From Hyphomicrobiales bacterium (lineage in GTDB: Bacteria; Pseudomonadota; Alphaproteobacteria; Rhizobiales; Aestuariivirgaceae), in assembly GCA_027024225.1 (NCBI GenBank), contig JALVSR010000137.1, positions 1-61,226 of the forward strand: DNA of 61,226 bases, read 5' to 3'. The first letter of the stretch is position 1, and every line of letters begins with the position of its first letter. This document shows, in pieces, positions 3,751 to 58,141 of the stretch. The position numbers and the translations under genes are program-made. The notes beneath the pieces are model-generated. The model saw nothing but the letters and a program-made list of their open reading frames with translations. It had not been told where the DNA came from and ran no database searches.

Positions 3751-4490
3751 TGGGCCAGAAAGTCAATCCGATCGGGTTCCGCCTCGGCGTCAACCGTACG
3801 TGGGATTCGCGCTGGTATGCCGACAAGGGCGAATACGGCGACCTGCTGCACGCCGACCTGAAGGTGCGCGACTACATTCGCAAGAACCTGAAGAACGCCG
3901 GCATTTCGCGCGTCATCATCGAGCGCCCGCACAAGAAGTGCCGGGTGACCATCCACACCGCGCGTCCGGGCGTCATCATCGGCAAGAAGGGCGCGGACAT
4001 CGAGAAGCTGCGGCGCAAGCTTTCCGAGCTGGCGGGCACGGATGTCCACCTGAACGTCGTTGAGGTGCGCAAGCCCGAGATCGACGCACAGCTGGTGGCC
4101 GACAATATCGCCCAGCAGCTGGAGCGCCGCGTGGCTTTCCGCCGCGCCATGAAGCGGGCCGTGCAGTCGGCCATGCGCATGGGCGCGGAGGGCATCCGCA
4201 TCAATTGCGGTGGCCGCCTGGGCGGCGCCGAGATCGCCCGCACCGAGTGGTATCGCGAGGGCAGGGTGCCGCTGCACACGCTGCGCGCGCACATCGATTA
4301 CGGCACCGCCACCGCCGTTACCGCTTATGGCACCAATGGCATCAAGGTGTGGATCTTCAAGGGCGAGCTGATGGAGCATGATCCCTTCGCCCAGGAGAAG
4401 CATGACAAGGCCCTGCAGGAAGGCGGTGGCCGTCCACGCCGCGGTGGTGGTCGCCGGCGCGAAGGTGGCCGCCCCGGCAGGCAGGCCTGA
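3750..4490 (+). CDS. rpsC: 30S ribosomal protein S3
   Basis: [26 protein letters not shown]. Confidence 0.99.
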
Positions 4491-4520
4491 GGTCGCTTGG
4501 AAATTCGGGAGTTCTGAACC

Positions 4521-4934
4521 ATGTTGCAGCCGAAACGCACAAAGTTTCGCAAAGTCCAGAAAGGCCGCCTGAAAGGCGTGGCCAAGGGCGGCACCCAGCT
4601 GACCTTCGGCGCCTACGGTCTGAAGGCCCTGCAGGCGGAGCGCGTGACCGCGCGTCAGATCGAGGCCGCACGCCGCGCTATCACCCGTCACATGAAGCGT
4701 ACCGGCAAGGTGTGGATTCGCGTCTTTCCGGACCTGCCGGTCACGGCCAAGCCGACGGAAGTGCGCATGGGCAAGGGCAAGGGCTCGGTGGAATACTGGG
4801 CCGCGCGCGTGAAGCCCGGCCGGATCCTGTTCGAGATCGACGGCGTTCCGCGCGAAGTGGCGGAAGAGGCCATGCGGCTGGCCGCCGCCAAGCTTCCCAT
4901 CAAGTGCCGCTTCGTGGCGCGGCCGGGTGAATGA
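4521..4934 (+). CDS. rplP: 50S ribosomal protein L16
   Basis: [19 protein letters not shown]. Confidence 0.98.
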
Positions 4935-4999
4935 TCCGGCAAGCTGGGCGGGATGGCACGACTGACTGAAACGGAACAACGAATTCGGAGACAAGGGCC

Positions 5000-5212
5000 A
5001 TGAAACCGGCCGAAATCAGGGCGATGAGTGACGAGGAGCTCAAGAATACGCTCCTGGAGCTCAAGAAGGAACAGTTCAATCTGCGCTTCCAGAAGGCCGC
5101 GGGCCAGCTGGAAAACACGGCGCGCATCCGCCAGGTGCGGCGCGATATCGCGCGCATCAAGACGGAAATGACCGCGCGCCGCAAGCAGAAGGCCACTCAG
5201 GCTGCCGGTTGA
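5000..5212 (+). CDS. rpmC: 50S ribosomal protein L29
   Basis: [31 protein letters not shown]. Confidence 0.96.
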
Positions 5213-5307
5213 CGCATGTCAGCCGTGCATGAATGAAAAATGGTTGAAATATCGGGCGCTGCCGTTCATATGTGGCGGCGTTGATTTGCAAAGAGAGACT
5301 GGGAAAA

Positions 5308-5556
5308 ATGCCGAAGCGCGTATTGCAGGGCACGGTGGTATCCGACACCAACGACAAGACCGTCGTGGTGCTGGTGGAGCGTCGCTTCACCCATCCGCTG
5401 TACAAGAAGACGGTGCGCCGCACCAAGAAATATCACGCCCATGATGAAAACAACGAGTACAAGGTGGGCGACGTGGTGCGTATCGAGGAGTGCCGTCCCA
5501 TTTCGCGCAAGAAGCGCTGGCGGGTGATCGAACGGGTGGAGAGTGCCCGCGCCTGA
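5308..5556 (+). CDS. rpsQ: 30S ribosomal protein S17
   Basis: [34 protein letters not shown]; start chosen inside the longer ORF. Confidence 0.96.
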
Positions 5557-5729
5557 GCGGGCGTGGAGGGACTGGCCGGCCGGATGGCCGCCAGCCACCA
5601 TCATGCCCCGGGCCTTTCAGAGGCATCCTTTGGCAGGATCGAGGGTCTTGTCCCGGCTGGCGCGGACAGCCGCTGCCGCCGGAAACGGAACGAAAGAGAC
5701 GGTGTAATTGGAATCGAACGGGTGAAGCC

Positions 5730-6098
5730 ATGATCCAGGTGGAAACGAAGCTGGACGTTGCCGACAATTCCGGCGCCCGCAAGGTGCAGTGCATCAAGGT
5801 GCTGGGCGGCTCGAAGCGCAAGTATGCTTCCGTGGGCGACATCATCGTGGTGTCGGTGAAGGAGGCCATTCCGCGCGGCCGCGTGAAGAAGGGCCAGGTG
5901 CTCAAGGCCGTGGTGGTGCGCACCGCCAAGGACGTGAAGCGTCCCGATGGCTCAGTCATCCGCTTCGACAACAACGCGGCGGTGCTCATCAACAACCAGG
6001 GCGAGCCCATTGGCACCCGCATCTTCGGGCCGGTCCCGCGTGAGCTGCGCGCCAAGAATCACATGAAGATCATTTCGCTCGCTCCGGAGGTGTTGTAA
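5730..6098 (+). CDS. rplN: 50S ribosomal protein L14
   Basis: [33 protein letters not shown]. Confidence 0.98.
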
Positions 6099-6415
6099 TG
6101 GCTGCGAGAATCAGGAAAGGCGACACGGTGGTGGTCATCGCCGGTCGCGACAAGGGCAAGAAAGGCGAGGTGCTGAAGGTCTTGCCAAAGGAAAATCGCG
6201 CCATCGTCAAGGGTGTGAACATCGTCAAGCGCCATCAGAAGCCCGCCGCCAACCAGGCCGGTGGCATCGTGGAGAAGGAGGCGCCCGTTCACATCTCCAA
6301 CCTGGCCCACGTGGACCCGAAGGACGGCAAGCCGACGCGGGTGGGCTTCAAGGTGCTGGATGATGGCCGCAAGGTGCGCTACGCCAAACGCTCGGGAGAG
6401 GTGATCGATGTCTGA
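6098..6415 (+). CDS. rplX: 50S ribosomal protein L24
   Basis: [28 protein letters not shown]. Confidence 0.97.
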
Positions 6416-6992
6416 GGCGAAAGAAAAATACGTGCCGCGCCTGCGCAAGCATTACGACGAGGTGGTCAGGCCGCAGCTTATCGAGCGCTTCGGCTACACC
6501 AATCCCATGCAGGTGCCGAAGATCGAGAAGATCGTGCTCAACATGGGCGTTGGCGAAGGGGTGCAGGACTCGAAGCTGGTGCAGTTCGCCGCCGACGAGC
6601 TGACCAAGATCGCCGGCCAGCGCGCCGTCATCACCCGCGCGCGCAAGGCCATCGCCGGTTTCAAGCTGCGTGCCGGCATGCCCATCGGCGCCAAGGTCAC
6701 CGTGCGGGGCGACAGGATGTACGAGCTGCTGGATCGCATCGTGAACATCGCGCTGCCGCGCGTGCGCGACTTCCGCGGCCTGAACCCGAAGAGCTTCGAT
6801 GGCAACGGCAACTACGCCTTCGGGATCCGCGAGCACATCGTGTTCCCGGAAATCGACTATGACAAGGCGCTGAAGATCCTGGGGCTGGATGTCATCATCC
6901 ACACCACGGCGGAATCCGACGAGGAAGCCATGGCCCTGCTGGAGGGCTTCAACTTCCCGTTCCGCAAGCGCCGTCAGCAACAGGCGGCCTGA
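6408..6992 (+). CDS. rplE: 50S ribosomal protein L5
   Basis: L5 motifs ([33 protein letters not shown]). Confidence 0.98.
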
Positions 6993-7047
6993 ATGATCTG
7001 ACAATTCGTCGGCACGACGAGAGTCGACACGAAGAGGCTGAACGAAC

Positions 7048-7353
7048 ATGGCGAAGAAAGGCAAGATCGAAAGCAACGAGAAGCGCAAGCGGCTGGTGAA
7101 GAAATATGCGAAGAAGCGCGCCGAGCTTCTGGCCATCGCGCGCGACCGTTCGCGCTCGATGGAGGAGCGTTGGGAAGCGCAGATGAAGCTGGCCAAGCTG
7201 CCGCGCAATTCCGCACCCATCCGTGTGCGCAATCGTTGCGAACTCACGGGGCGTCCGCGCGGCTATTACCGCAAGTTCCGCCTTTCGCGCATCGCGCTGC
7301 GCGAGCTGGCGAACAGCGGCCAGTTGCCGGGCGTTACCAAGGCGAGCTGGTAA
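7048..7353 (+). CDS. rpsN: 30S ribosomal protein S14 (long, zinc-free type)
   Basis: [28 protein letters not shown]. Confidence 0.98.
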
Positions 7354-7467
7354 GGCCGAAACGGATTTTCGGGAATCCGGCGTGATCCTGTCGCGCCGGA
7401 TGTGCGATATCGCTCTGTCTTCCTTGGCTTTCGAGGGACAGGGGGCTGATCGAAAGGAGATGAGGAC

Positions 7468-7866
7468 ATGACGATTACCGATCCCATCGCGGACATGCTG
7501 GCCCGCATCCGCAATGCCCACATGCGGCACAAGGCCACCGTGCGCATGCCCGCGTCGAGGATGCGCGAGCGTATTCTGCAGGTGTTGCAGGACGAAGGCT
7601 ACATTCGCGGCTTCAAGCGCATCGACCTGGGGGGCGGCAAGGCCGACCTGGAGGTCGAGCTGAAATACTATGACGGCAAGCCGGTGATCCGCGAGATCAC
7701 CCGCGTGTCCAAGCCGGGTCGCCGCGTTTACACCTCGGTCGAGGATATGCCGCTGGTCTACAACGGCCTTGGCATCGCCATCCTTTCCACCTCCAAGGGT
7801 GTGATGAGTGACGCGCAGGCGCGCGAGCAGAACGTCGGTGGCGAGGTTATCTGCACGGTATTCTGA
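7468..7866 (+). CDS. rpsH: 30S ribosomal protein S8
   Basis: [22 protein letters not shown]. Confidence 0.98.
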
Positions 7867-7941
7867 TCAGGGCCCCTGCCTCTGCGCCGGAACGGGGCGC
7901 CGGGGCGAGGAGGCCGGTGATTTGAGGAAAGGAACATCATC

Positions 7942-8478
7942 ATGTCCCGCATTGGCAAGAAACCGGTGCCCATTCCTTCCGGCGTGGAAGTGAAGATCGA
8001 TGGCAACACCGTCATCGTGAAAGGGCCGAAAGGACAGCTCGAAACCTCTTTCCTGGACGACCTGGTGGAAGTCGTCATCGAGGACAACGAGGTAAAGGTG
8101 GCGCCGAAGAACGACACCAAGCCGGCGCGCTCCGCCTGGGGGCTCACGCGCTCGCTGATCAACAACATGGTCATCGGCGTGACGGAGGGTTTTCAGAAGA
8201 AGCTGGAGATTGTCGGCGTGGGGTATCGCGCCCAGTTGCAGGGCAGGAACCTGAAGCTCAACCTTGGCTTCAGCCATGATGTCATCTATGAAGTGCCCGA
8301 AGGTGTCGAGGTGCAGGTGCCCCAGCCGACGGAAATCATCGTTTCCGGCATCGACAAGCAGAAGGTAGGTCAGGTGGCTGCGGAAATCCGCGCCTGGCGT
8401 CCGCCGGAGCCCTACAAGGGCAAGGGTGTTCGCTACGCCGACGAATACATCTTCCGCAAGGAAGGCAAAAAGAAGTAA
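7942..8478 (+). CDS. rplF: 50S ribosomal protein L6
   Basis: [21 protein letters not shown]. Confidence 0.98.
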
Positions 8479-8574
8479 TCGATCGAGCAATTGGTCTTCC
8501 GCAGGGTCTGGCACCCATCGGCGCCGGAAACCGGGGGAAGGGACAAGGACAACGTTTATGGACGAGTTCGAGCC

Positions 8575-8940
8575 ATGGTGCGCAAACTGAGCAGAGAGGA
8601 ACGCAGGCGCGCGCGGGTGCGGCGCAAGCTGAAAACGCGTGCGGGCGACGGGCGGGCCCGCCTGTCGGTGTTCCGCTCCCACAAGTATATCTATGCCCAG
8701 ATCATCGATGACACGAAGGGCCACACGCTGGTCGCCGCATCTTCCAACGAGCCGGAAATGCGCAAGAAGCTGAAGAGCACCGGTAATGTGGAAGCCGCCT
8801 TTGAGGTGGGCAAGCTGCTGGCCGAGCGCGCGAAGAAGGCCGGGGTCGAAAAGGTCTATTTCGACCGCGGCGGCTACCTGTATCATGGCCGCGTGAAGGC
8901 GCTGGCCGATGGCGCGCGCGAGGGTGGCCTGGACTTCTGA
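8575..8940 (+). CDS. rplR: 50S ribosomal protein L18
   Basis: [21 protein letters not shown]...[18 protein letters not shown]; start chosen inside the longer ORF. Confidence 0.96.
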
Positions 8941-9016
8941 AAAAGGGTCAACTTCCATCGCCAAGGTCATGAGAAATTCATGAAACCGGGCGGTGGCAAC
9001 ATGAGCAGAGAGCAAG

Positions 9017-9553
9017 ATGGCTGCAAGAGAAAGAGAACGCGACGACGAATTCGTCGAGCACCTGGTGCATATCAACCGCGTTGCCAAGGTGGTCAAGGGT
9101 GGCCGTCGGTTCGGCTTCGCCGCGCTTGTCGTGGTGGGCGACCAGAAAGGCCGCGTGGGCTTTGGACACGGCAAGGCGCGAGAGGTGCCGGAGGCCATCC
9201 GCAAGGCCACCGAGCAGGCCCGGCGCAACCTCATTCGCGTGCCGCTGCGCGAGGGGCGCACCCTGCATCATGACGTCACCGGCAAGCACGACGCCGGCAA
9301 GGTGCTCATACGTTCCGCGCCTCCGGGCACGGGTATCATCGCCGGTGGTCCCATGCGCGCGGTGTTCGAGGCGCTCGGCGTGGGCGACGTGGTGGCCAAG
9401 TCCATCGGCTCGTCGAACCCCTACAATATGGTGCGCGCCACCTTCAACGCGCTTTCGAAGTGCGAAAATCCGCGGAAAGTGGCGGCGCGCCGCGGAAAGA
9501 AGGTTTCCGAGATTCTGAAGAACCGCCGCCAGGTCGAGGAAGCCGGCCGCTGA
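9017..9553 (+). CDS. rpsE: 30S ribosomal protein S5
   Basis: [38 protein letters not shown]. Confidence 0.98.
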
Positions 9554-9605
9554 GCAGGGCCCGCGCCACGTGGCCGGGCGTCATGATAGGAACGGGATGA
9601 AGGTC

Positions 9606-9803
9606 ATGGCCGACAAGAAACAGAAGACCATCACCGTGGAGCAGATTGGCAGCCCGATTCGCAGGCCGAAGGATCAGCGCGCCACGCTTATCGGGCTGGG
9701 GCTTAACAAGATGCATCGCCGCCGCACTCTCCCGGACACGCCGCAGGTGCGCGGCATGATCAGGAAAGTGTCGCATCTCGTGCGCATCGTGGACGAGGGC
9801 TGA
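9606..9803 (+). CDS. rpmD: 50S ribosomal protein L30
   Basis: [39 protein letters not shown]. Confidence 0.96.
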
Positions 9804-9884
9804 GTGGCTGGTGTTTCTGCGAATGGCTGCACGGACGCAGACCAGACTTGCGGGATTTGAACCTGAATCGCTGGAGTGTATACC

Positions 9885-10376
9885 ATGCGACTGAACGAAC
9901 TTTCTCCGGCACCCGGCTCGCGCAAGGTGGGCAGGCGCGTTGGCCGTGGCATCGGCTCGGGCAAGGGCAAGACCTGTGGCCGCGGCCACAAGGGCGCGAA
10001 GGCTCGCGCCGGTACCGCCATCAAGGGTTTCGAAGGCGGCCAGATGCCCATTTATCGCCGTCTGCCCAAGCGTGGCTTCCGCCTGCATGTGGGCAAGCGC
10101 TTCGCCGAGGTGCGCATTTCGCGTATTCTCGAACTGGTGGAACAGGGGCGGCTGGACGCCAAAAACGTCATCGATGAGGATGCGCTGGTAGCGGCCGGCG
10201 CCGTGCGCCGCAAGAAGCAGGGCATCCGCGTGCTGGGTCCGGCCGAGATCGACAAGCCCATTCAGCTGAAGGTGAGCCATGTGACCACCGCCGTGAAGGA
10301 AGCCGTCGAGAAGGCTGGCGGCAAGGTGGAGCTGATCGAGGCGAAGCCGAAAAAGGCTGAGAAGACAGAGGCATGA
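9885..10376 (+). CDS. rplO: 50S ribosomal protein L15
   Basis: MRLNELSPAPGSRKVGRRVGRGIGSGKGKTCGRGHKG. Confidence 0.98.
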   Translation: MRLNELSPAPGSRKVGRRVGRGIGSGKGKTCGRGHKGAKARAGTAIKGFEGGQMPIYRRLPKRGFRLHVGKRFAEVRISRILELVEQGRLDAKNVIDEDALVAAGAVRRKKQGIRVLGPAEIDKPIQLKVSHVTTAVKEAVEKAGGKVELIEAKPKKAEKTEA

Positions 10377-10436
10377 GTTTATCCGGCGCTCCCTGGTTAT
10401 CAGGGGCGCCGGTAGCATATCAGGGGGCGATCCCTC

Positions 10437-11771
<1,335 letters not shown>

Positions 11772-11793
11772 GAGCAAGACAGGGAAGGGAAAA

Positions 11794-12453
11794 ATGAACA
11801 TCATCCTGTTCGGCCCGCCAGGTGCGGGCAAGGGTACCCAGGCGAAGCGTCTGGAAAAGAACCGCGGGCTCATTCAGCTCTCCACCGGCGACATGCTGCG
11901 CGCCGCCGTGGCCGCCGGCACCGAATATGGCAAGAAGGCCAAGGAGATCATGGAGCGTGGCGAGCTGGTGCCCGACGAGGTGGTCATCAACATCATCTCC
12001 GACCGCCTGGACGAGGACGACGTGAAAAACGCTCCGGGTGTCATCTTCGACGGCTTTCCGCGCACCGTGGCCCAGGCCGAGGCGCTGGACAAGATGCTGG
12101 CGGAAAAGGGCATGAAGCTCGATGCCGTCATCGTGCTGGACGTGGATGACGAGGCGCTGGTGGAACGCATCACCGGCCGCTTTACCTGTGCGAAGTGCGG
12201 CAAGGGCTACCACGAGAAGTTCGAGCGGCCGAAGGTCGAAGGCGTGTGTGACGAGTGCGGTTCCACCGAGTTCACCCGCCGGGCGGACGACAACGAGGAG
12301 ACCGTGCGCCAGCGGCTGGAAGCCTACCATGCCCAGACCGCGCCGTTGATCGAGTATTACGAAAAGGCCGGCATCGTGAAGAAGGTGGATGGCATGGCCG
12401 CCATTGACGAGGTCACGAAACAGATCGAGGAAGTGCTCGACCAGCTGGCCTGA
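11794..12453 (+). CDS. adk: adenylate kinase with tetracysteine LID domain
   Basis: [23 protein letters not shown] has CxxC...CxxC (CAKC...CDEC). Confidence 0.98.
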
Positions 12454-12610
12454 GGCCGGCACGGCATTGCATGCGGGGGCTGGACATGGAGCGGGCTCCG
12501 GCCCGGCGGGGGCGTGGCTCCTGTCCGGCCCCTTCACAACCAGACCGGCATGCATCATGCAGTGGATGCATGGCGGCGATGAAACAGGATGCCGGCAGTC
12601 CCGCAAATGC

Positions 12611-41433: not shown

Positions 41434-43074
<1,641 letters not shown>

Positions 43075-43145
43075 GACGGCGCCCTTCGTTCTTTCGCAGA
43101 AACGGAAAAAGGCGTTTGGGCGGTAAAAAGAGGGTGCGCAGGAGA

Positions 43146-45746
43146 ATGAGACGACAGCGGCCGCCTTCGCGAAACGGTGCGCATTGCGGACCTTGCCGTG
43201 ATGGACGCATCACCCCTCGCCTGTGGTCGGGCGCCCTCATGCTCATCGTGCTGGCGGTGATGAGCGCCGCGGCAGCCCTTCACGCGCCGGCGCTGGCGCA
43301 AGAGCCCCGGCCGTCATCGGATGCGCAGCAACAAGGCGTCGATCGCGAGCCTTCCTCAAAGGCCGATGCGGATGAAGCCGCTCGGCCGGCGCCATCTGGC
43401 AATGTGCGCCTGGAAGCGGCGCTCAGCGGCACGGTGGAAGAGGCGAAGGCCGTGGCCGGACGCGTGGAGCGCCTGGCGGCCGAAGCGGACAAGACGCTGG
43501 GCCGGTTGCGGCTGCAGGTGGAACGCCCCGACGCCGATGAAAAATTGCTGCGGGAGAGCCGCTCCACGCTCAACAAGCTCAGCCTCGATCTGCTGGCCGG
43601 GCGCAAGGAGCTGGAGGCCCCCCTGGAGCATTTGCGCCAACAGCTCAAGGCGCTGGGCCCGGCGCCGAAGGCAGGGGAAACGGAAGACCCCGGCATCGCG
43701 GCCAGGCGCAAGCTGCTGCGGCAGGTTCTGCAACGGCTGGAGGCGGCCGATCGTCGCCTGGAGCTGCTGTTGCTGGAAATGCAACAACTGCACGACCGCG
43801 CCAGCGCCCGCCAGCGCAGCCTGTTCTTCTCCGAGATTCTCAAGCCCTCCCGCTCGGTGCTCAATCCTTTCCTGTGGGCGGACGGTCTGGCGCAGCTGCC
43901 GGAATACTGGACGCGGCTGCGGGTCATGGTGAACGGTTGGCTGCGGCAGGAAAAGCGCCATAGCCTCCTGGTGGCATCGGGCCTGATCTTCCTGGCGCTG
44001 GCCGCGGTCATATGGGCCTGGCGCCAATGGCGCGGCCCGTGGGAAAGAGGGCAGGCCAGCGCCGACAGGGTGCAGCGGCTGTGGCGGGCGGTGCGCGTGC
44101 CGTTGTTTGTGGCCCTGCTTACCGTGCTGTTGCTGGCCTTCCTCAAGATCGTGCTGTTCACATTGGGGACACCCTCGCCGCGCATGGAGCGGGTGCTTAC
44201 CGCCATCGCCATGGGCACGTTGTATGCCGCAGTGCTCATGGCATTGGCGCGCGGCATCCTGCGTCCGCGCACTCCCCACATGCGGCTGGTGGACATCGCG
44301 CACGAAGGCGCCAACCGCGCCTACCGCTGGGCGGCGCTCCTCGCCATTCTGCACGGGCTGGACGTCATCATCATCCGCTCGGCGGAAGAGCTGTTCATGC
44401 CCGTCTCGTTCATCGAGACGTGGAGCGCCTTCATGGCCATGCTGCACGTGGTGCTGGTGTGGATGTTCATCTTCACCATTCGCCGCGCCCGCGCGCTCAG
44501 CGAGGTGGCGCCCGACACCGCCCCGAAATATTTCCTGTTCGGCTGGGTGCGCTACGTGTTCCACGTGCTGCTGCTGCTGCTGCTGGTGGTCATCGTGCTG
44601 GCGCTTCTGTTGGGATACGTGGCGCTGGCGCATTTCATCGCCCGGCAGATGGTCTTCACCGCGGCGCTGGTGGCGGCCCTGTACCTGGTCCATCACCTGG
44701 CCGATGCGCTGGTGAAGAGCGCTTTTGACCCCCACTCGCCCGTGGGGCGTTTCCTGCGCGAAAATCTGCTCATCCCGGAAGCCACCATCGCCCGTGCCGG
44801 CGTGCTGTTTTCCACCCTGGTGGACATCGCGGTGGTGCTGGTGGGGCTGCCGCTCATCCTGATGCAATGGGCGGTGCAGCTCACCGATGTCTGGGTGTGG
44901 GTGCGCCAGGGCTTCTTCGGCTTCCAGGTGGGCAACATCACCATCGAGCCGGCCAATATCCTGCTTGGCATCCTGGTCTTCTTCATTGGCCTGTTGGTGG
45001 TGCGGTTGCTGATCCTGTGGCTGGACAAGCGGGTGCTGGCCCGCTCCGACATGGACGAGGGCATTCGCAACTCCATCCTCACGGTGGCGCGCTATACCGG
45101 CATTGTGGGGGCCTTCCTGGTGGCCATCTCGGTGGCGGGCATGAATCTGGCTTCGTTCGCCCTGTTCGGCGGCGCACTGGGCATTGGCATCGGCTTTGGC
45201 CTGCAGACCATCGTCAACAATTTCGTCTCCGGCCTCATCCTGCTGGCGGAGCGGCCCATCAAGGTGGGCGACCGTATCCGCGTGGCTGGCGAAGAAGGTA
45301 TCGTGAAGCGCATCCGCGTGCGCTCCACCGAGATAGAGACATTCGACCGCGTGTCCGTAATCGTGCCGAATTCGCAGCTCATTTCCGAGCCGGTGCTGAA
45401 CTGGTTCCATGAAAACCGCATCGGCCGGGTGCGGGTGCCGGTGGGGGTTTCCTATGACGCCGATCCGGAACAGGTGCGCGACATCTTGCTGAAATGCGCG
45501 CGCGAACACCCGAAGGTGCTGGCCTGGCCCGATCCGTTCGTGCAATTCATGGGGTTCGGCGCCAGCTCGCTGGATTTCGAGCTACGGGCCTACATTCCCG
45601 ACGCCGGGCAGCTGGGCGGGGTGGCTTCCGACCTGCATTACATGATCTTCCGCGCGCTGAAGGAAGCCGGAATCGAGATTCCGTTCCCGCAGCGGGATGT
45701 GCACGTGCGCACCCTGCCGCCAGAGCTGTTGTCCGGCAAGTCCTGA
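43146..45746 (+). CDS. DUF3772-containing mechanosensitive ion channel (MscS family)
   Basis: Signal-like N-terminus, coiled N-terminal domain, many TM segments, MscS core (FALFGGALGIGIGFGLQTIVNNFVSGLILLAERPIKVGDRI); start chosen inside the longer ORF. Confidence 0.9.
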   Translation: MRRQRPPSRNGAHCGPCRDGRITPRLWSGALMLIVLAVMSAAAALHAPALAQEPRPSSDAQQQGVDREPSSKADADEAARPAPSGNVRLEAALSGTVEEAKAVAGRVERLAAEADKTLGRLRLQVERPDADEKLLRESRSTLNKLSLDLLAGRKELEAPLEHLRQQLKALGPAPKAGETEDPGIAARRKLLRQVLQRLEAADRRLELLLLEMQQLHDRASARQRSLFFSEILKPSRSVLNPFLWADGLAQLPEYWTRLRVMVNGWLRQEKRHSLLVASGLIFLALAAVIWAWRQWRGPWERGQASADRVQRLWRAVRVPLFVALLTVLLLAFLKIVLFTLGTPSPRMERVLTAIAMGTLYAAVLMALARGILRPRTPHMRLVDIAHEGANRAYRWAALLAILHGLDVIIIRSAEELFMPVSFIETWSAFMAMLHVVLVWMFIFTIRRARALSEVAPDTAPKYFLFGWVRYVFHVLLLLLLVVIVLALLLGYVALAHFIARQMVFTAALVAALYLVHHLADALVKSAFDPHSPVGRFLRENLLIPEATIARAGVLFSTLVDIAVVLVGLPLILMQWAVQLTDVWVWVRQGFFGFQVGNITIEPANILLGILVFFIGLLVVRLLILWLDKRVLARSDMDEGIRNSILTVARYTGIVGAFLVAISVAGMNLASFALFGGALGIGIGFGLQTIVNNFVSGLILLAERPIKVGDRIRVAGEEGIVKRIRVRSTEIETFDRVSVIVPNSQLISEPVLNWFHENRIGRVRVPVGVSYDADPEQVRDILLKCAREHPKVLAWPDPFVQFMGFGASSLDFELRAYIPDAGQLGGVASDLHYMIFRALKEAGIEIPFPQRDVHVRTLPPELLSGKS

Positions 45747-53980: not shown

Positions 53981-55426
53981 TCAGGCGGCGTGCCGCCACA
54001 AGAGCCAGATGCGGCGGCTCACCTCCGCGTTCATCACCACGGCGATCAACGCCAGCGTGAGCAGCGGCAGGTTCAGCAAAGCGCCAAGCATGACGAGAAA
54101 TACCCGCACGTCCCGTCCCATGCGAAAGCGCTGTTCACGCGCCGCACCCAGCCGCTTGCGCATGAAGCCGTCGTACTTGTCCGCCGTGTAGCTGTTCACG
54201 AAGCTGCCCACTATGGCCGCGAAGCCCCACAGGATGGCCGCCGCGCCGGTGCCACCTGTGGCCACGGCGGCGCTCCACGCGTGCCAGGTGAGGCCGAACA
54301 GCAAGAAGGCGTCCGCATAGCGGTCCAGCACCGCGTCCAGCCAGGCGCCGAAGTTGCTGTGCAGGCGCTTCAGCCGCGCGATCTCGCCATCCACGCCATC
54401 GATGATGGAGGAAAGCTGCGCCAGCAACCCTCCCAGCGCCAGCGTCCACCAGCCGGGGAGGGCCATCAGCAAGGCCGCCAGCGTGGCCAGCAGGAAGGAG
54501 AAAATGGTTATCTGGTTGGGCGTGACGGGCAGATGCGCGATGCGCCGGGTGAGCCAGCGCGAGACGGGCCGATTGAGCCAGCGCGAGACGGGTCCGTCGT
54601 GCGCCTTGCCGCGTTCGGCGTTCAGCAATCGGCGCTCGGCCTCTGCCAGGGCTTCCGGCGTGTCCACGTCCAGCCAGCGCGCGCCGGAAACATCGGCCGC
54701 CAGCGCCCCGTTTTCCGTGGCCAGTCTGCGCATGGCGGCGGACAGGCTCATTTCGTCACCGTCCTCCCGCGCCCGGCGCAGAGCGTGCATCATGCCATCG
54801 GTGCACAGGAACAGGCCGGTGTCGACAGCCTGCCACTGCGGAATATCCTTGCCGATGGCACGGATGAAAAGCTCGCCTTCGCGTTCTTCCAGCCGCACCT
54901 TCGTGGCATCGGCCGGATCGAAAATGGCGGCCAGGTTGCGATCCACCGCCAGCCGCACCGCGCCCGAGGGCAAGGGCTTGCGCAGCATTTCCTCCGCCAT
55001 GGCCGGGTCCAGCAGGTGATCGCACATGGCCAGCCAGAAGGAGAGCGTTTCGCCGGGGCCTTCGGAGGCCTCGCCTTGCGCATCCGCCAGCAGGGCCTCC
55101 ATGGCCGCCAGCGCCGAAGCGCCGTTGCCATCGCGCCAGTCCTTTACCCGCACCGGAACGATCTCCACGCCGCGGCGCCGACCCGTTTCCAGGAAGTGGC
55201 GCTCCACTTCATCCGCGCGGTGGCCCAGCGCCACGTAAAGGCGCCGCACGCCGATGTCACGGAAGAACAGCACCGCGCGTTCGGCCAGGGTGAGCCCCAG
55301 CACCCGCGTGAGCGGCTTTGGCCGCTCCTGTGCCGCAAACAGGCGCGAGCCTTCGCCCGCGGCCAGCAGTACCGCGCGCGTGGGTGCGGGAATGCGCCCT
55401 GTTTTCCGCGGCCATTCGCTGCTCAT
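53981..55426 (-). CDS. fused nucleotidyltransferase/CDP-alcohol phosphotransferase, likely IPCT/DIPPS (DIP-phosphate synthesis)
   Basis: N-terminal NTP transferase (AVLLAAGEGSRLF...RPKPLTRVLG; WLDVDTPEALAEAERRLL) and C-terminal CDP-alcohol motif DGEIARLKRLHSNFGAWLDAVLD; two genes downstream of ino1; start inferred (ORF opens at 55537). Confidence 0.78.
   Translation of the reverse strand: MSSEWPRKTGRIPAPTRAVLLAAGEGSRLFAAQERPKPLTRVLGLTLAERAVLFFRDIGVRRLYVALGHRADEVERHFLETGRRRGVEIVPVRVKDWRDGNGASALAAMEALLADAQGEASEGPGETLSFWLAMCDHLLDPAMAEEMLRKPLPSGAVRLAVDRNLAAIFDPADATKVRLEEREGELFIRAIGKDIPQWQAVDTGLFLCTDGMMHALRRAREDGDEMSLSAAMRRLATENGALAADVSGARWLDVDTPEALAEAERRLLNAERGKAHDGPVSRWLNRPVSRWLTRRIAHLPVTPNQITIFSFLLATLAALLMALPGWWTLALGGLLAQLSSIIDGVDGEIARLKRLHSNFGAWLDAVLDRYADAFLLFGLTWHAWSAAVATGGTGAAAILWGFAAIVGSFVNSYTADKYDGFMRKRLGAAREQRFRMGRDVRVFLVMLGALLNLPLLTLALIAVVMNAEVSRRIWLLWRHAA
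54551..54592. repeat. 24-bp in-frame tandem duplication (GAGCCAGCGCGAGACGGG...) in the interdomain linker
   Basis: Two GAGCCAGCGCGAGACGGG copies 24 bp apart; protein PVSRWLNRPVSRWLTRR. Confidence 0.85.
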
Positions 55427-55553
55427 GGGATGTTCTTTCCGGGTGGAAGACAGGGTGGGGGGTGTGGCCCTTGCCGCGGAAACGTCTCCAGGCTGAAACA
55501 TCACCGACCCGTTTTTCCCTTCGCTGGTGGTTGCCATTCACAAGTGGTTCGTT

Positions 55554-56471
55554 TCAAAGGAACACCTTGCGCAGCCGCGCCAGAATGTCTTCCAGCAGGT
55601 CGCGGCTGGCGGCGGCGATGATGGAGCGCCGCTCCAGCAGGTTCGCGGGCGGCGGCGCCTGCTCCAGCGCCGCATCCAGCAGCATGATCACGCCGCCAGC
55701 GGCGCGCACCATGGCCGCGGCCGCCAGCCAGCTTTCGGCCGTCAGCCGTCCACGCACATCGATATGGGCATCCAGCTGCCCCCGCGCAACGGCCAGCAGG
55801 GCGGCGGAGCAGCAGCCAAGCGTGCGCACCCCCCGCGCCGTCTGCATGACCTCCGCCAGTGGCAGACCGGGCGCATGATGGTTCAGCTCCACCGAGATCA
55901 TGGCCTTTTGCAGGCGCTCTACCTTGTTCACCCGCAGCGCCATGGAACCTTCGGGCCATTCGGCCCGGGCGCCCTCATGGTCCATGACGAACGTGGCGTC
56001 CGCGCCTGCCAGCGGGTGGATGAGCGCGGCGCGCACGGTGGATGCGGCCAGAGGCCCCGCCGGGGGCAGGGCAGCGGCGCAGAAATTGGACATGGCGGCG
56101 AAAGGCAGGCCACGGGCGAAGTTGTCGGATCCGTCCACCGGGTCGATGACGAGGCGCATCAATGGCGCTCCACGCCCCATGTGCTGTGGCCGCGCTTCCT
56201 CCGAAAGCAACACCAGCGGCACCTGGCGCTCGCGCAGCAGCGTCTCCATGGCCGCGTGGGCGGCAAGATCGAAGGCCCGCACGGCATCGCCCTTGGCGTT
56301 TCGCACCCGGGCGGGGTTGGTGCCGGCGGCAAGGGCGGCGCCGATGCCGACATTGGCCAGGTCGCGCAACAGGGCGAGCTCGGCGTCATCCCGATGCTTG
56401 GCGGCATAAGTGGTCACGGCGGCTCTCCCATCATCCCTTCGCATCGTCGGGCCGGTGACGTGGACGCGCAT
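55554..56471 (-). CDS. inositol monophosphatase-family phosphatase (start uncertain)
   Basis: SEEARPQHMGRGAPLMRLVIDPVDGSDNFARGLPFAAMS metal-binding motif. Confidence 0.8.
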   Translation of the reverse strand: MRVHVTGPTMRRDDGRAAVTTYAAKHRDDAELALLRDLANVGIGAALAAGTNPARVRNAKGDAVRAFDLAAHAAMETLLRERQVPLVLLSEEARPQHMGRGAPLMRLVIDPVDGSDNFARGLPFAAMSNFCAAALPPAGPLAASTVRAALIHPLAGADATFVMDHEGARAEWPEGSMALRVNKVERLQKAMISVELNHHAPGLPLAEVMQTARGVRTLGCCSAALLAVARGQLDAHIDVRGRLTAESWLAAAAMVRAAGGVIMLLDAALEQAPPPANLLERRSIIAAASRDLLEDILARLRKVFL

Positions 56472-56558
56472 CCACCACCTGCGCCGTCACGACCCGGCAA
56501 CGGCGAATTTCTTCGTTGCCCTTTTCCTTGAATATCAAAATGCATCAAGGACCACCCA

Positions 56559-56625
56559 CCGCTCCGCGCCCCCACCCAACCCCCAAATTGTGAGAAACAA
56601 GGGGTTGGGTGGGGACGCGGGGCGG
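56559..56625. repeat. structured intergenic element, copy B
   Basis: CCGCTCCGCGCCCCCACCCAACCCC / GGGGTTGGGTGGGGACGCGGGGCGG arms; homologous to copy A. Confidence 0.7.
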
Positions 56626-56683
56626 TTTCTTCGGTCAGACATTGCGCAATCTGGTATAATGGGAAACCGGGGGGAATTGAAAA

Positions 56684-56712
56684 GAGGCGGAAGGAACAAT
56701 TCCTTCCGCCTC
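56684..56712 (-). terminator. Rho-independent terminator of ino1
   Basis: GAGGCGGAAGGAA-caa-TTCCTTCCGCCTC; TTTT follows on minus strand. Confidence 0.8.
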
Positions 56713-56736
56713 GCTTTCGTTTCGCGTGTGGCCGCG

Positions 56737-57882
56737 TCACTCGGCGGCTTCGCGCACTTCCCGCTGGCTGGGCAGGGGGAAGAAGCGCTCCCAGTCTTCG
56801 TCCGCCAGGAAGGCCTCCACCGCCTCGCGCGCGGCATCGTCGCGGATCTGCACCGGCGGCGTCTTCATGTAGTAGCTGCACGCCGGGTACACGGGGCCGC
56901 TCATGCCACGCTCCTTCGCGATGGCGGCGCAGCGCAGCGCGTCGATGACCACGCCGGCGGAGTTGGGCGAATCCTGCACCGAGAGCCTCAGCTCAAGCTC
57001 GATGGGTGCGCCGCCGAAGCCCTGGCCCTCCATGCGGATGAAGGCGATCTTGTTGTCCTTCTGCCAGGGCACGTAGTCCGACGGCCCGATGTGCACGTTT
57101 TTCGGGTCGATGGGCGCGTCCAGCTGCGAGACCACCGCGCCGGTCTTGGACTTCTTCTTCGACTTCAGCCGGTCCAGCGCCAGCATGTTCAGGAAATCCG
57201 TGTTGCCACCCGTGTTGAGCTGATAGGTGCGCTCAAGCGCGTAGCCACGGTCGGCGAACAGGCGCGTGAGCAACCGATGCACGATGGTGGCGCCCACCTG
57301 GCTCTTGATGTCGTCACCCACGATGGGCACGCCCGCTGCGCGGAACCTCTCCGCCCATTCCGGATCGGAGGCGATGAACACCGGCACCGCGTTCACGAAG
57401 GCCACGCCCGCCTTCAGCGCCGCTTCCGCGTAGTGCCGCACCGCCTGCTCGGAACCCACGGGCAGGTAACACACCAGCACGTCCGCACCCGACTTCTTCA
57501 GCTCTTCGACCACGTCCACGGGTTCGGCGTCGGCCACGCGGAAGGCCACGTCCTCGTCATAGTCGGCCATGTGCGGCGCCACGCCGTCCAGCACCGGACC
57601 CATCTTCACCGTCACACCGGTCTCGGGGATTTCCGGCTGGAACACCATGGTGTTGTTGGGCTTGGCGAAGATGGCCTTTTCCAGAGGCTGCCCCACCTTG
57701 CGTTTGTCCACGTCGAATGCGGCCACCCATTCGATATCCCACGGCTTGTAACCTGCCATGTCCGGGTGCATCAGGCCGGTGGAGCCATCATATCCATTGC
57801 GACGATAGTATTCGACACCCTGCACAAGAGAACTTGCGCAATTGCCCACACCTGCAATGGCAACCCTGATCTTTTTCGCCAT
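56737..57882 (-). CDS. ino1: myo-inositol-1(3)-phosphate synthase
   Basis: MAKKIRVAIAGVGNCASSLVQGVEYYR...TYQLNTGGNTDFLNMLALDRLKSKKKSKTGAV. Confidence 0.93.
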   Translation of the reverse strand: MAKKIRVAIAGVGNCASSLVQGVEYYRRNGYDGSTGLMHPDMAGYKPWDIEWVAAFDVDKRKVGQPLEKAIFAKPNNTMVFQPEIPETGVTVKMGPVLDGVAPHMADYDEDVAFRVADAEPVDVVEELKKSGADVLVCYLPVGSEQAVRHYAEAALKAGVAFVNAVPVFIASDPEWAERFRAAGVPIVGDDIKSQVGATIVHRLLTRLFADRGYALERTYQLNTGGNTDFLNMLALDRLKSKKKSKTGAVVSQLDAPIDPKNVHIGPSDYVPWQKDNKIAFIRMEGQGFGGAPIELELRLSVQDSPNSAGVVIDALRCAAIAKERGMSGPVYPACSYYMKTPPVQIRDDAAREAVEAFLADEDWERFFPLPSQREVREAAE

Positions 57883-58141
57883 CTTTCTCCTCTCCATCGT
57901 TGATGCTCACAACAATCCTCTTTCCAGCCCCCAGCTGCCGGGCTGGCGAAAACGTTGCAATCATCGGCAACGGAAAGAAGCGCCAACGGCTGAAAACGAA
58001 TCGCCTTGCCTTACTCGCGAACGAGTGGATTCAGCCTGCGGCAATCATTGATTTATGCATGCGAGGACCTGTCTTCAACCCCGGTGGGTTTCGCCTTTCG
58101 GGGTGATTAGAGACAGAGCGGGAGAAAACGAAAGAACACGG

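What the first reader, a model, noticed from the sequence alone, without database searches (positions are those of the whole stretch)
53981..57882. Candidate di-myo-inositol-phosphate (DIP) thermolyte cluster in a probable alphaproteobacterium
Same-strand order is ino1 (inositol-phosphate synthase), an IMPase-family phosphatase, then a fused sugar-nucleotidyltransferase/CDP-alcohol phosphotransferase with an intact D-G-x2-A-R-x8-G-x3-D-x3-D motif (DGEIARLKRLHSNFGAWLDAVLD). Established knowledge: DIP synthesis in (hyper)thermophiles such as Archaeoglobus, Thermotoga and Rubrobacter uses MIPS, then bifunctional IPCT/DIPPS, then dephosphorylation of phospho-DIP. All three activities are encoded here in one locus. 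Inference: this organism makes DIP or a related inositol phosphodiester, and the IMPase-family protein is a candidate DIPP phosphatase. A DIP pathway in this lineage would be unexpected and hints at a thermophilic or halotolerant lifestyle.
Basis: partly seen in the sequence, partly recalled or inferred. Interest (0 to 1): 0.82.

Follow-up and report, generated by a model that had tools for sequence, protein, structure and literature searches.

The report
Inositol-phosphodiester solute genes in alphaproteobacteria
Three neighbouring genes very probably let an uncultured alphaproteobacterium make di-myo-inositol-phosphate, a protective solute known mainly from heat-loving microbes, and one of them is an unusual phosphatase that nearly always travels with the other two and may do the last step.

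Summary
Confirmed: 57897-53981 on the minus strand encodes inositol-1-phosphate synthase, an IMPase-fold phosphatase and a fused cytidylyltransferase/CDP-alcohol phosphotransferase. The fusion's best sequence and structure match in the PDB is Archaeoglobus fulgidus IPCT-DIPPS (4mnd). Catalytic signature, IPCT motifs, six-helix topology expected for a soluble acceptor, and the arginines that bind acceptor phosphate in related enzymes are all present. A DIP-type pathway is the best reading (about 0.75). The product was not measured.

New: the same three genes recur in the same order in about a dozen uncultured alphaproteobacteria with different flanking genes. The phosphatase is a distinct subfamily in which the usual metal-ligand Asp (WDxAAG) is Ser/Asn after an invariant Glu. 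In about 300 genomes of the order it occurs in exactly the seven that carry the fusion, plus one whose locus is masked. The fusion's two domains have different histories.

Not supported: thermophily. "Unexpected lineage" is only partly right: cold deep-sea Thaumarchaeota have IPCT/DIPPS, and a DIP pathway is annotated in SAR116. Main rivals: another soluble inositol phosphodiester, or a CDP-inositol lipid. Verdict: new variant of a known kind.

The parts
53981..55426 (-). Fused IPCT/DIPPS-like gene (481 aa): N-terminal CTP:inositol-1-phosphate cytidylyltransferase-like domain, C-terminal CDP-alcohol phosphotransferase
   Evidence: best sequence and fold hit 4mnd; NF041135 E 2.9e-72 full length (below its Thermococcales cut-off)
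54614..55381 (-). Cytidylyltransferase (IPCT) domain: AAGxGSRL, PKPL, MCDH, ATKV, IGKxIxxWxxxDTG, WLDVDT motifs
   Evidence: aligns with A. fulgidus IPCT 2xme (E 2e-12) and T. maritima IPCT 4jd0 (E 2e-7); most of these residues invariant in 22 homologues
53984..54598 (-). CDP-alcohol phosphotransferase (DIPPS-like) domain, juxtamembrane helix plus six predicted helices, no extra C-terminal helices
   Evidence: AF2299 E 1e-55 and 4mnd E 1.6e-29 with a profile; DSSP of the model
54323..54400 (-). CDP-AP signature DxxDGxxAR...GxxxDxxxD (D343-D368)
   Evidence: all eight residues present and invariant
54011..54115 (-). Acceptor-phosphate arginines: R438/R441 (RDVR) and R471/R472
   Evidence: RDxR and the second Arg shared with AfDIPPS and AF2299; role by analogy to RsPIPS R153/R191 (PMC4634129)
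55554..56471 (-). IMPase-fold phosphatase of a distinct subfamily (start ATG 56471 or GTG 56417), candidate DIPP phosphatase
56121..56144 (-). DPVDGSDN metal-binding motif of the phosphatase
   Evidence: invariant in 21 homologues
55731..55736 (-). Glu-Ser at the motif-3 position, where four other IMPase paralogues of this genome have Asp
   Evidence: E[SN] in 24 of 24 cluster IMPases
56737..57897 (-). myo-inositol-1-phosphate synthase (ino1/MIPS), start 57897 or 57882
   Evidence: TIGR03450 E 9e-142, PDB 1gr0 E 4.5e-128; the only MIPS match in this genome
56684..56712 (-). Terminator-like hairpin (13 bp stem, then TTTT) after ino1
   Evidence: region z-score -8
56562..56622 (.). Second long G+C-rich inverted repeat between ino1 and the phosphatase gene

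Best explanation
The locus encodes a di-myo-inositol-phosphate-type pathway. MIPS turns glucose-6-phosphate into L-myo-inositol-1-phosphate. The soluble domain of the fusion couples it to CTP, giving CDP-inositol. The membrane domain transfers phospho-inositol from CDP-inositol to a second inositol-1-phosphate, giving phospho-DIP (DIPP). The dedicated IMPase-fold phosphatase removes the terminal phosphate to give DIP, which would serve as a compatible solute. Shown by sequence and model: enzyme families, catalytic signatures, acceptor arginines, fold and topology, conserved gene set and order, co-occurrence. Inferred: substrates, product, the phosphatase's step, and the physiological role (salt, pressure or general stress rather than heat).
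For: Best PDB sequence hit and best structural hit are both A. fulgidus IPCT-DIPPS: E 2.7e-40; TM 0.75 by target, E 2.5e-23, ahead of AF2299. IPCT-specific motifs are shared with 2xme and 4jd0. All eight CDP-AP residues and both arginine sites are present, with AfDIPPS sharing the RDxR and the second arginine. RsPIPS work assigns these arginines to the phosphate of inositol phosphate, and assigns six helices to enzymes with soluble acceptors (PMC4634129). Order MIPS-IMP-fusion recurs in 13 loci with no other shared neighbour outside the genus. The phosphatase subfamily is in the same 7 of 298 order genomes as the fusion, plus one masked locus, and in 4 of the 5 fusion genomes in a class sample, the fifth being cut by a contig end. 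CDP-AP tree: joined with the MIPS-linked fusions of group B at 100/98.
Against: Scores are below the curated cut-off of the Thermococcales IPCT/DIPPS model (244 vs 580 bits). The C-terminal domain alone is closer to AF2299, whose structure was solved with a CDP-glycerol donor, than to AfDIPPS. The two fusion domains have different histories, so function cannot be transferred from one full-length orthologue. The phosphatase lacks the canonical motif-3 Asp. No solute data exist. 60 of the 67 order genomes with MIPS lack the fusion or have it unreadable, so MIPS alone says little.
Confidence: 0.75

Rival explanations
1. The pathway makes another soluble inositol phosphodiester, such as glycero-phospho-inositol, with CDP-inositol as donor and glycerol phosphate (or CDP-glycerol and inositol phosphate) as substrates of the membrane domain.
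For: The CDP-AP domain is closer by sequence to AF2299 (E 1e-55) than to AfDIPPS (E 1.6e-29), and AF2299 has a donor pocket shown to take the glycerol moiety of CDP-glycerol (PMC4634129).
Against: AF2299's nucleotidyl domain is not found as a relative of the window's IPCT domain in the PDB search, whereas the window's domain carries the IPCT motifs; the full-length fold match prefers 4mnd; MIPS accompanies the fusion in every group A locus long enough to show it, so inositol-1-phosphate is the supplied substrate.
Confidence: 0.13
2. It is a CDP-inositol-dependent inositol-lipid pathway like that of Rhodothermus marinus or the alternative Bacteroidetes cluster, the membrane domain transferring phospho-inositol to a diradylglycerol.
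For: Such a pathway is published (Jorge et al. 2015, cited in PMC9246714; from my memory its abstract mentions alphaproteobacterial homologues). The window's IPCT domain clusters with those of Rhodospirillales loci that use longer, separate CDP-AP genes.
Against: The model has only a juxtamembrane helix and six membrane helices; lipid-acceptor enzymes typically have three or four more (PMC4634129). Acceptor-phosphate arginines are conserved in group A, but the second one is lost in groups C, D and E. The CDP-AP domain is separated from group E at 100/97. A phosphatase is not needed for a direct transfer to lipid.
Confidence: 0.08
3. The fusion makes another CDP-alcohol product (CDP-glycerate of ceramide phosphoglycerate, or a phosphonate of the PntC type).
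For: CpgD of Caulobacter resembles IPCT (PMC12275187).
Against: This genome has a separate CpgB/CpgD-like locus on contig C44. No phosphonate genes are conserved nearby, and MIPS plus phosphatase are the fixed partners.
Confidence: 0.03

Closest known systems
Bifunctional IPCT/DIPPS of Archaeoglobus fulgidus (AF0263, PDB 4mnd)
   Same: Same domain order, IPCT motifs, CDP-AP signature, RDxR and second acceptor arginine, fold
   Different: About 29% identity in the structural alignment; the two domains of the window protein have separate histories; linked to an IMPase subfamily
AF2299 CDP-alcohol phosphotransferase (PDB 4o6m)
   Same: Closest PDB relative of the membrane domain
   Different: Its extramembrane domain is only cytidylyltransferase-like and does not match the window's IPCT domain by sequence
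Deep-sea Thaumarchaeota IPCT/DIPPS genomic island with IMPA gene (PMC7265257, PMC8397731)
   Same: Fused IPCT/DIPPS in a cold, non-thermophilic organism, with an IMPase gene nearby in the hadal MAG
   Different: Archaeal; the described island lists no MIPS; relation of its IMPA to this subfamily not tested
CDP-inositol lipid pathways (Rhodothermus marinus; alternative Bacteroidetes cluster, PMC9246714)
   Same: MIPS plus an NTP transferase proposed to make CDP-inositol plus a CDP-AP
   Different: Separate genes, lipid acceptor, HAD hydrolase instead of IMPase in Bacteroidetes
AF2372 / SuhB-type inositol monophosphatases
   Same: Same fold (TM 0.86 by target to AF2372), DPVDGSDN motif
   Different: About 20% identity; motif-3 Asp replaced by Ser/Asn after an invariant Glu; co-occurs with the fusion

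Membership tests
Bifunctional IPCT/DIPPS (di-myo-inositol-phosphate pathway) | N-terminal cytidylyltransferase fused to C-terminal CDP-AP in one chain | tested here: met
Bifunctional IPCT/DIPPS (di-myo-inositol-phosphate pathway) | IPCT active-site and family motifs (GxGxRL, PKPL, D of MxDH, IGKxxxxxxxxDTG, WxDVDT) | tested here: met
Bifunctional IPCT/DIPPS (di-myo-inositol-phosphate pathway) | CDP-AP eight-residue signature and acceptor arginines shared with AfDIPPS | tested here: met
Bifunctional IPCT/DIPPS (di-myo-inositol-phosphate pathway) | Both domains descend together with known IPCT/DIPPS | tested here: inconclusive
   CDP-AP domain groups with the group-B MIPS-linked fusions; IPCT domain does not (AU p 1e-6). 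No sampled protein besides AF0263 and T. maritima IPCT is biochemically characterised
Bifunctional IPCT/DIPPS (di-myo-inositol-phosphate pathway) | Makes CDP-inositol and DIPP | not testable with these tools
   needs enzyme assay
NCBIfam NF041135 (Thermococcales IPCT/DIPPS equivalog) | Score at or above the curated cut-off of 580 bits | tested here: not met
   243.9 bits: not a member of that clade-specific equivalog
NCBIfam TIGR03450 (mycothiol INO1) | Score at or above cut-off 638 | tested here: not met
   472.4 bits: a MIPS of this type, not the actinobacterial equivalog
MIPS (Inos-1-P_synth, PF01658) | Score over Pfam gathering cut-off | tested here: met
   117.7 bits vs 27
Inositol monophosphatase family (PF00459) | Score over cut-off and IMPase fold | tested here: met
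   55.5 bits vs 27; Foldseek top hits are IMPase-family structures
Canonical inositol monophosphatase | Motif-3 metal-ligand Asp (WDxAAG) | tested here: not met
   Ser, preceded by invariant Glu; four paralogues of this genome have Asp
CDP-inositol lipid synthase (lipid acceptor) | Additional C-terminal membrane helices for a lipid acceptor | tested here: not met
   six membrane helices only; criterion from PMC4634129, described there as typical of eukaryotic lipid-acceptor enzymes

The most novel reading that the evidence does not exclude
The phosphatase is a dedicated DIPP phosphatase with a re-built metal site (Glu-Ser/Asn in place of the motif-3 Asp). Together with a chimeric IPCT/DIPPS and MIPS it forms a transferable three-gene cassette that gives non-thermophilic, mostly uncultured alphaproteobacteria DIP as an osmolyte or pressure-protective solute.
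Probability: 0.45. Interest if true: 0.65.

Novelty: new variant of a known kind. Interest (0 to 1): 0.5.

Why it matters
DIP is usually described as a marker of hot marine life; published exceptions are genome predictions in cold deep-sea archaea. A compact, conserved three-gene set in alphaproteobacteria, with a phosphatase subfamily that strictly follows the key enzyme, offers a concrete candidate for the last step of DIP synthesis and a testable case for DIP outside thermophiles. It also shows that IPCT domains and CDP-AP domains are re-paired in evolution, so annotation by one domain alone can mislead between solute and lipid pathways.

Tried and rejected
The key DIP papers (Rodrigues 2007; structures of AfDIPPS and AF2299) are not held, so their content is known to me only through citing papers and memory. 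Thermophily: IVYWREL F = 0.399 (rough prediction about 39 C), within the range 0.384-0.414 of congeners and family members; 16S first 700 nt GC 0.60 vs 0.53-0.56 and tRNA GC 0.632 vs 0.630 in a congener and 0.608 in another genus of the family: weak and conflicting, left open. Plasmid origin: no plasmid record holds the full fusion. Alternative as CpgD: rejected because a separate CpgB/CpgD-like locus exists. Absence of the cluster in congener G003 was first assumed, then withdrawn: the region next to its MIPS and IMPase genes is masked. Alignment of the acceptor arginines directly to RsPIPS was not shown in the output, so equivalence is by way of AfDIPPS and AF2299. Geometry of the Glu-Ser site in the AlphaFold model could not be measured because coordinates are not given.
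Full report
Observation. The minus strand of 53981-57897 carries three consecutive, co-directional genes: MIPS (56737-57897), an IMPase-family protein (55554-56417 or 56471) and a fusion of a nucleotidyltransferase with a CDP-alcohol phosphotransferase (53981-55426). Pfam and PDB searches support each family assignment strongly. The quoted motif is correct and extends to the full eight-residue signature. The genome (G000, 2.22 Mb, 155 contigs) is complete to about 100% by the tool's estimate. A congener's contig has the same length as a named Hyphomicrobiales MAG contig (4207 bases, L036 and L091), so the order is probably Hyphomicrobiales; this is an inference.

The fusion. Its best PDB relative is A. 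fulgidus IPCT/DIPPS over nearly its whole length. The NCBIfam model of the Thermococcales enzyme matches end to end, but at 244 bits against a cut-off of 580. The N-terminal domain hits A. fulgidus and T. maritima inositol-1-phosphate cytidylyltransferases first, and shares with them the ATK/ASK, IGK...DTG and W-[LMT]-[DE]-[VI]-D motifs. An AlphaFold2 model made from 22 homologues (mean pLDDT 87.8) has 4mnd as best structural match, ahead of AF2299. Its membrane part is a juxtamembrane helix plus six helices. PMC4634129 states that six helices go with soluble acceptors and that lipid acceptors typically need three or four more. It also shows that two arginines in phosphatidylinositol-phosphate synthase are needed for activity, consistent with binding the phosphate of the acceptor. 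The window protein has RDxR (R438, R441) and R471/R472. AfDIPPS and AF2299 share the RDxR and the second arginine in the profile alignments, and the positions are invariant or nearly so in 22 homologues. These facts favour inositol-1-phosphate as acceptor.

Conserved gene set. A scan of 84,980 species genomes gave 77 loci. In 13 alphaproteobacterial-type loci, including the window, the order is MIPS, IMPase, fusion. One of them is labelled Planctomycetota but sits inside the alphaproteobacterial clade. Outside the genus no other neighbour is shared, so the three genes behave as a unit. Other arrangements occur: MIPS plus fusion without IMPase (group B: Nitrospirae, GoM-Arc1 and others); IMPase plus fusion (group C: Zixibacteria, Eisenbacteria, Gemmatimonadetes, Acidobacteria); fusion alone (group D: Latescibacteria); and in Rhodospirillales either a single chain of MIPS and IPCT beside a convergent CDP-AP gene, or separate IPCT, CDP-AP and divergent MIPS genes (group E and relatives). 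In a sample of 298 genomes of the order the full fusion is in 7 and MIPS in 67. The phosphatase subfamily at 340 bits or more is in exactly those 7, and a partial match of 220 bits is in an eighth whose neighbouring sequence is masked. In a sample of 385 genomes of the class the fusion is in 5; the phosphatase is found in 4 of those 5 and nowhere else at E 1e-45. The fifth (G549) appears to be the contig of L016, which begins inside the phosphatase gene.

The phosphatase. It has the IMPase fold (best match AF2372) and DPVDGSDN. The canonical motif-3 Asp, present in the genome's four other IMPase paralogues, is Ser or Asn in all 24 cluster homologues, preceded by an invariant Glu. Other invariant or nearly invariant marks are N.KGD....FD.A, ELNH and GC.[ST]. 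The strict partnership and the presence of four canonical paralogues argue for a dedicated substrate; phospho-DIP is the natural candidate. This is inference; no activity was tested.

Different histories of the two domains. In the CDP-AP tree the alphaproteobacterial cassette proteins join group B with support 100/98, apart from the Rhodospirillales CDP-APs. In the IPCT tree they fall with the Rhodospirillales and group C domains, and a clade with group B is rejected (AU p about 1e-6). Caveats: long branches at both references, and groups were named from the same data. The simplest reading is that an alphaproteobacterial IPCT was paired with a DIPPS-like membrane domain.

Transcription. In relatives ino1, the phosphatase and the fusion are closely spaced. 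In the window a terminator-like hairpin follows ino1, and a second long inverted repeat lies before the phosphatase gene, so ino1 may be expressed apart.

Lifestyle. Amino-acid composition gives no sign of thermophily relative to congeners. The 16S fragment has GC 0.60 against 0.53-0.56 in three order members, and tRNA GC is slightly raised in the genus. This would be compatible with mild warmth but is not decisive. Published cold deep-sea Thaumarchaeota with IPCT/DIPPS (PMC7265257, PMC8397731, PMC10773090) show that the genes do not imply heat.

Comparison with the known. The pathway works like the DIP pathway of hyperthermophiles. Membership in the curated Thermococcales equivalog is not met; membership in the broader IPCT/DIPPS kind is met on every feature testable here except joint descent of the domains, which is inconclusive. 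A DIP pathway was already annotated in alphaproteobacterial SAR116 genomes (PMC12262181) and partly in SAR11 (PMC6018831), so the idea of DIP in this class is not new. The conserved cassette with its own phosphatase subfamily and the re-paired domains were not found in the papers searched.

Main rival. A CDP-inositol lipid pathway is real in other bacteria (PMC9246714) and the IPCT domain alone cannot exclude it. Topology, acceptor arginines and the presence of a phosphatase weigh against it here.

Noticed in passing
L059:2686-4599, L065:4807-6723, L066:4840-6738, L068:4840-6738, L069:2922-5027, L084:4648-6627: A single open frame joins MIPS and the IPCT-like domain (about 630-700 aa), next to a convergent CDP-alcohol phosphotransferase gene: a candidate glucose-6-phosphate to CDP-inositol enzyme, possibly for inositol lipids.
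   Followed up: partly
L061:5217-8657, L062:2535-5943: Overlapping genes for IPCT-like protein, long CDP-AP and a divergent MIPS (about 26% identity over part of the chain) in marine alphaproteobacteria, a possible CDP-inositol lipid operon.
   Followed up: no
L099 (G000:C44) 5000-12517: Separate locus with a lipid-kinase-like gene, a CDP-AP and a CpgD-like nucleotidyltransferase, resembling the ceramide phosphoglycerate genes of Caulobacter.
   Followed up: partly
L186 (G003:C11) 3884-12000: Run of N beginning inside the phosphatase gene next to a MIPS 91% identical to the window's; presence of the fusion in this congener cannot be judged.
   Followed up: yes
G002:C126:15999-16829: Second, more distant copy of the cluster-type phosphatase (142 bits) in a congener that also carries the cluster.
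   Followed up: no
window 56562-56622: Long, nearly perfect G+C-rich inverted repeat between ino1 and the phosphatase gene, in addition to the terminator-like hairpin.
   Followed up: partly
window 42963-45746: Long membrane protein whose C-terminal part reads like an MscS-type mechanosensitive channel, about 8 kb from the cluster; family not tested.
   Followed up: no
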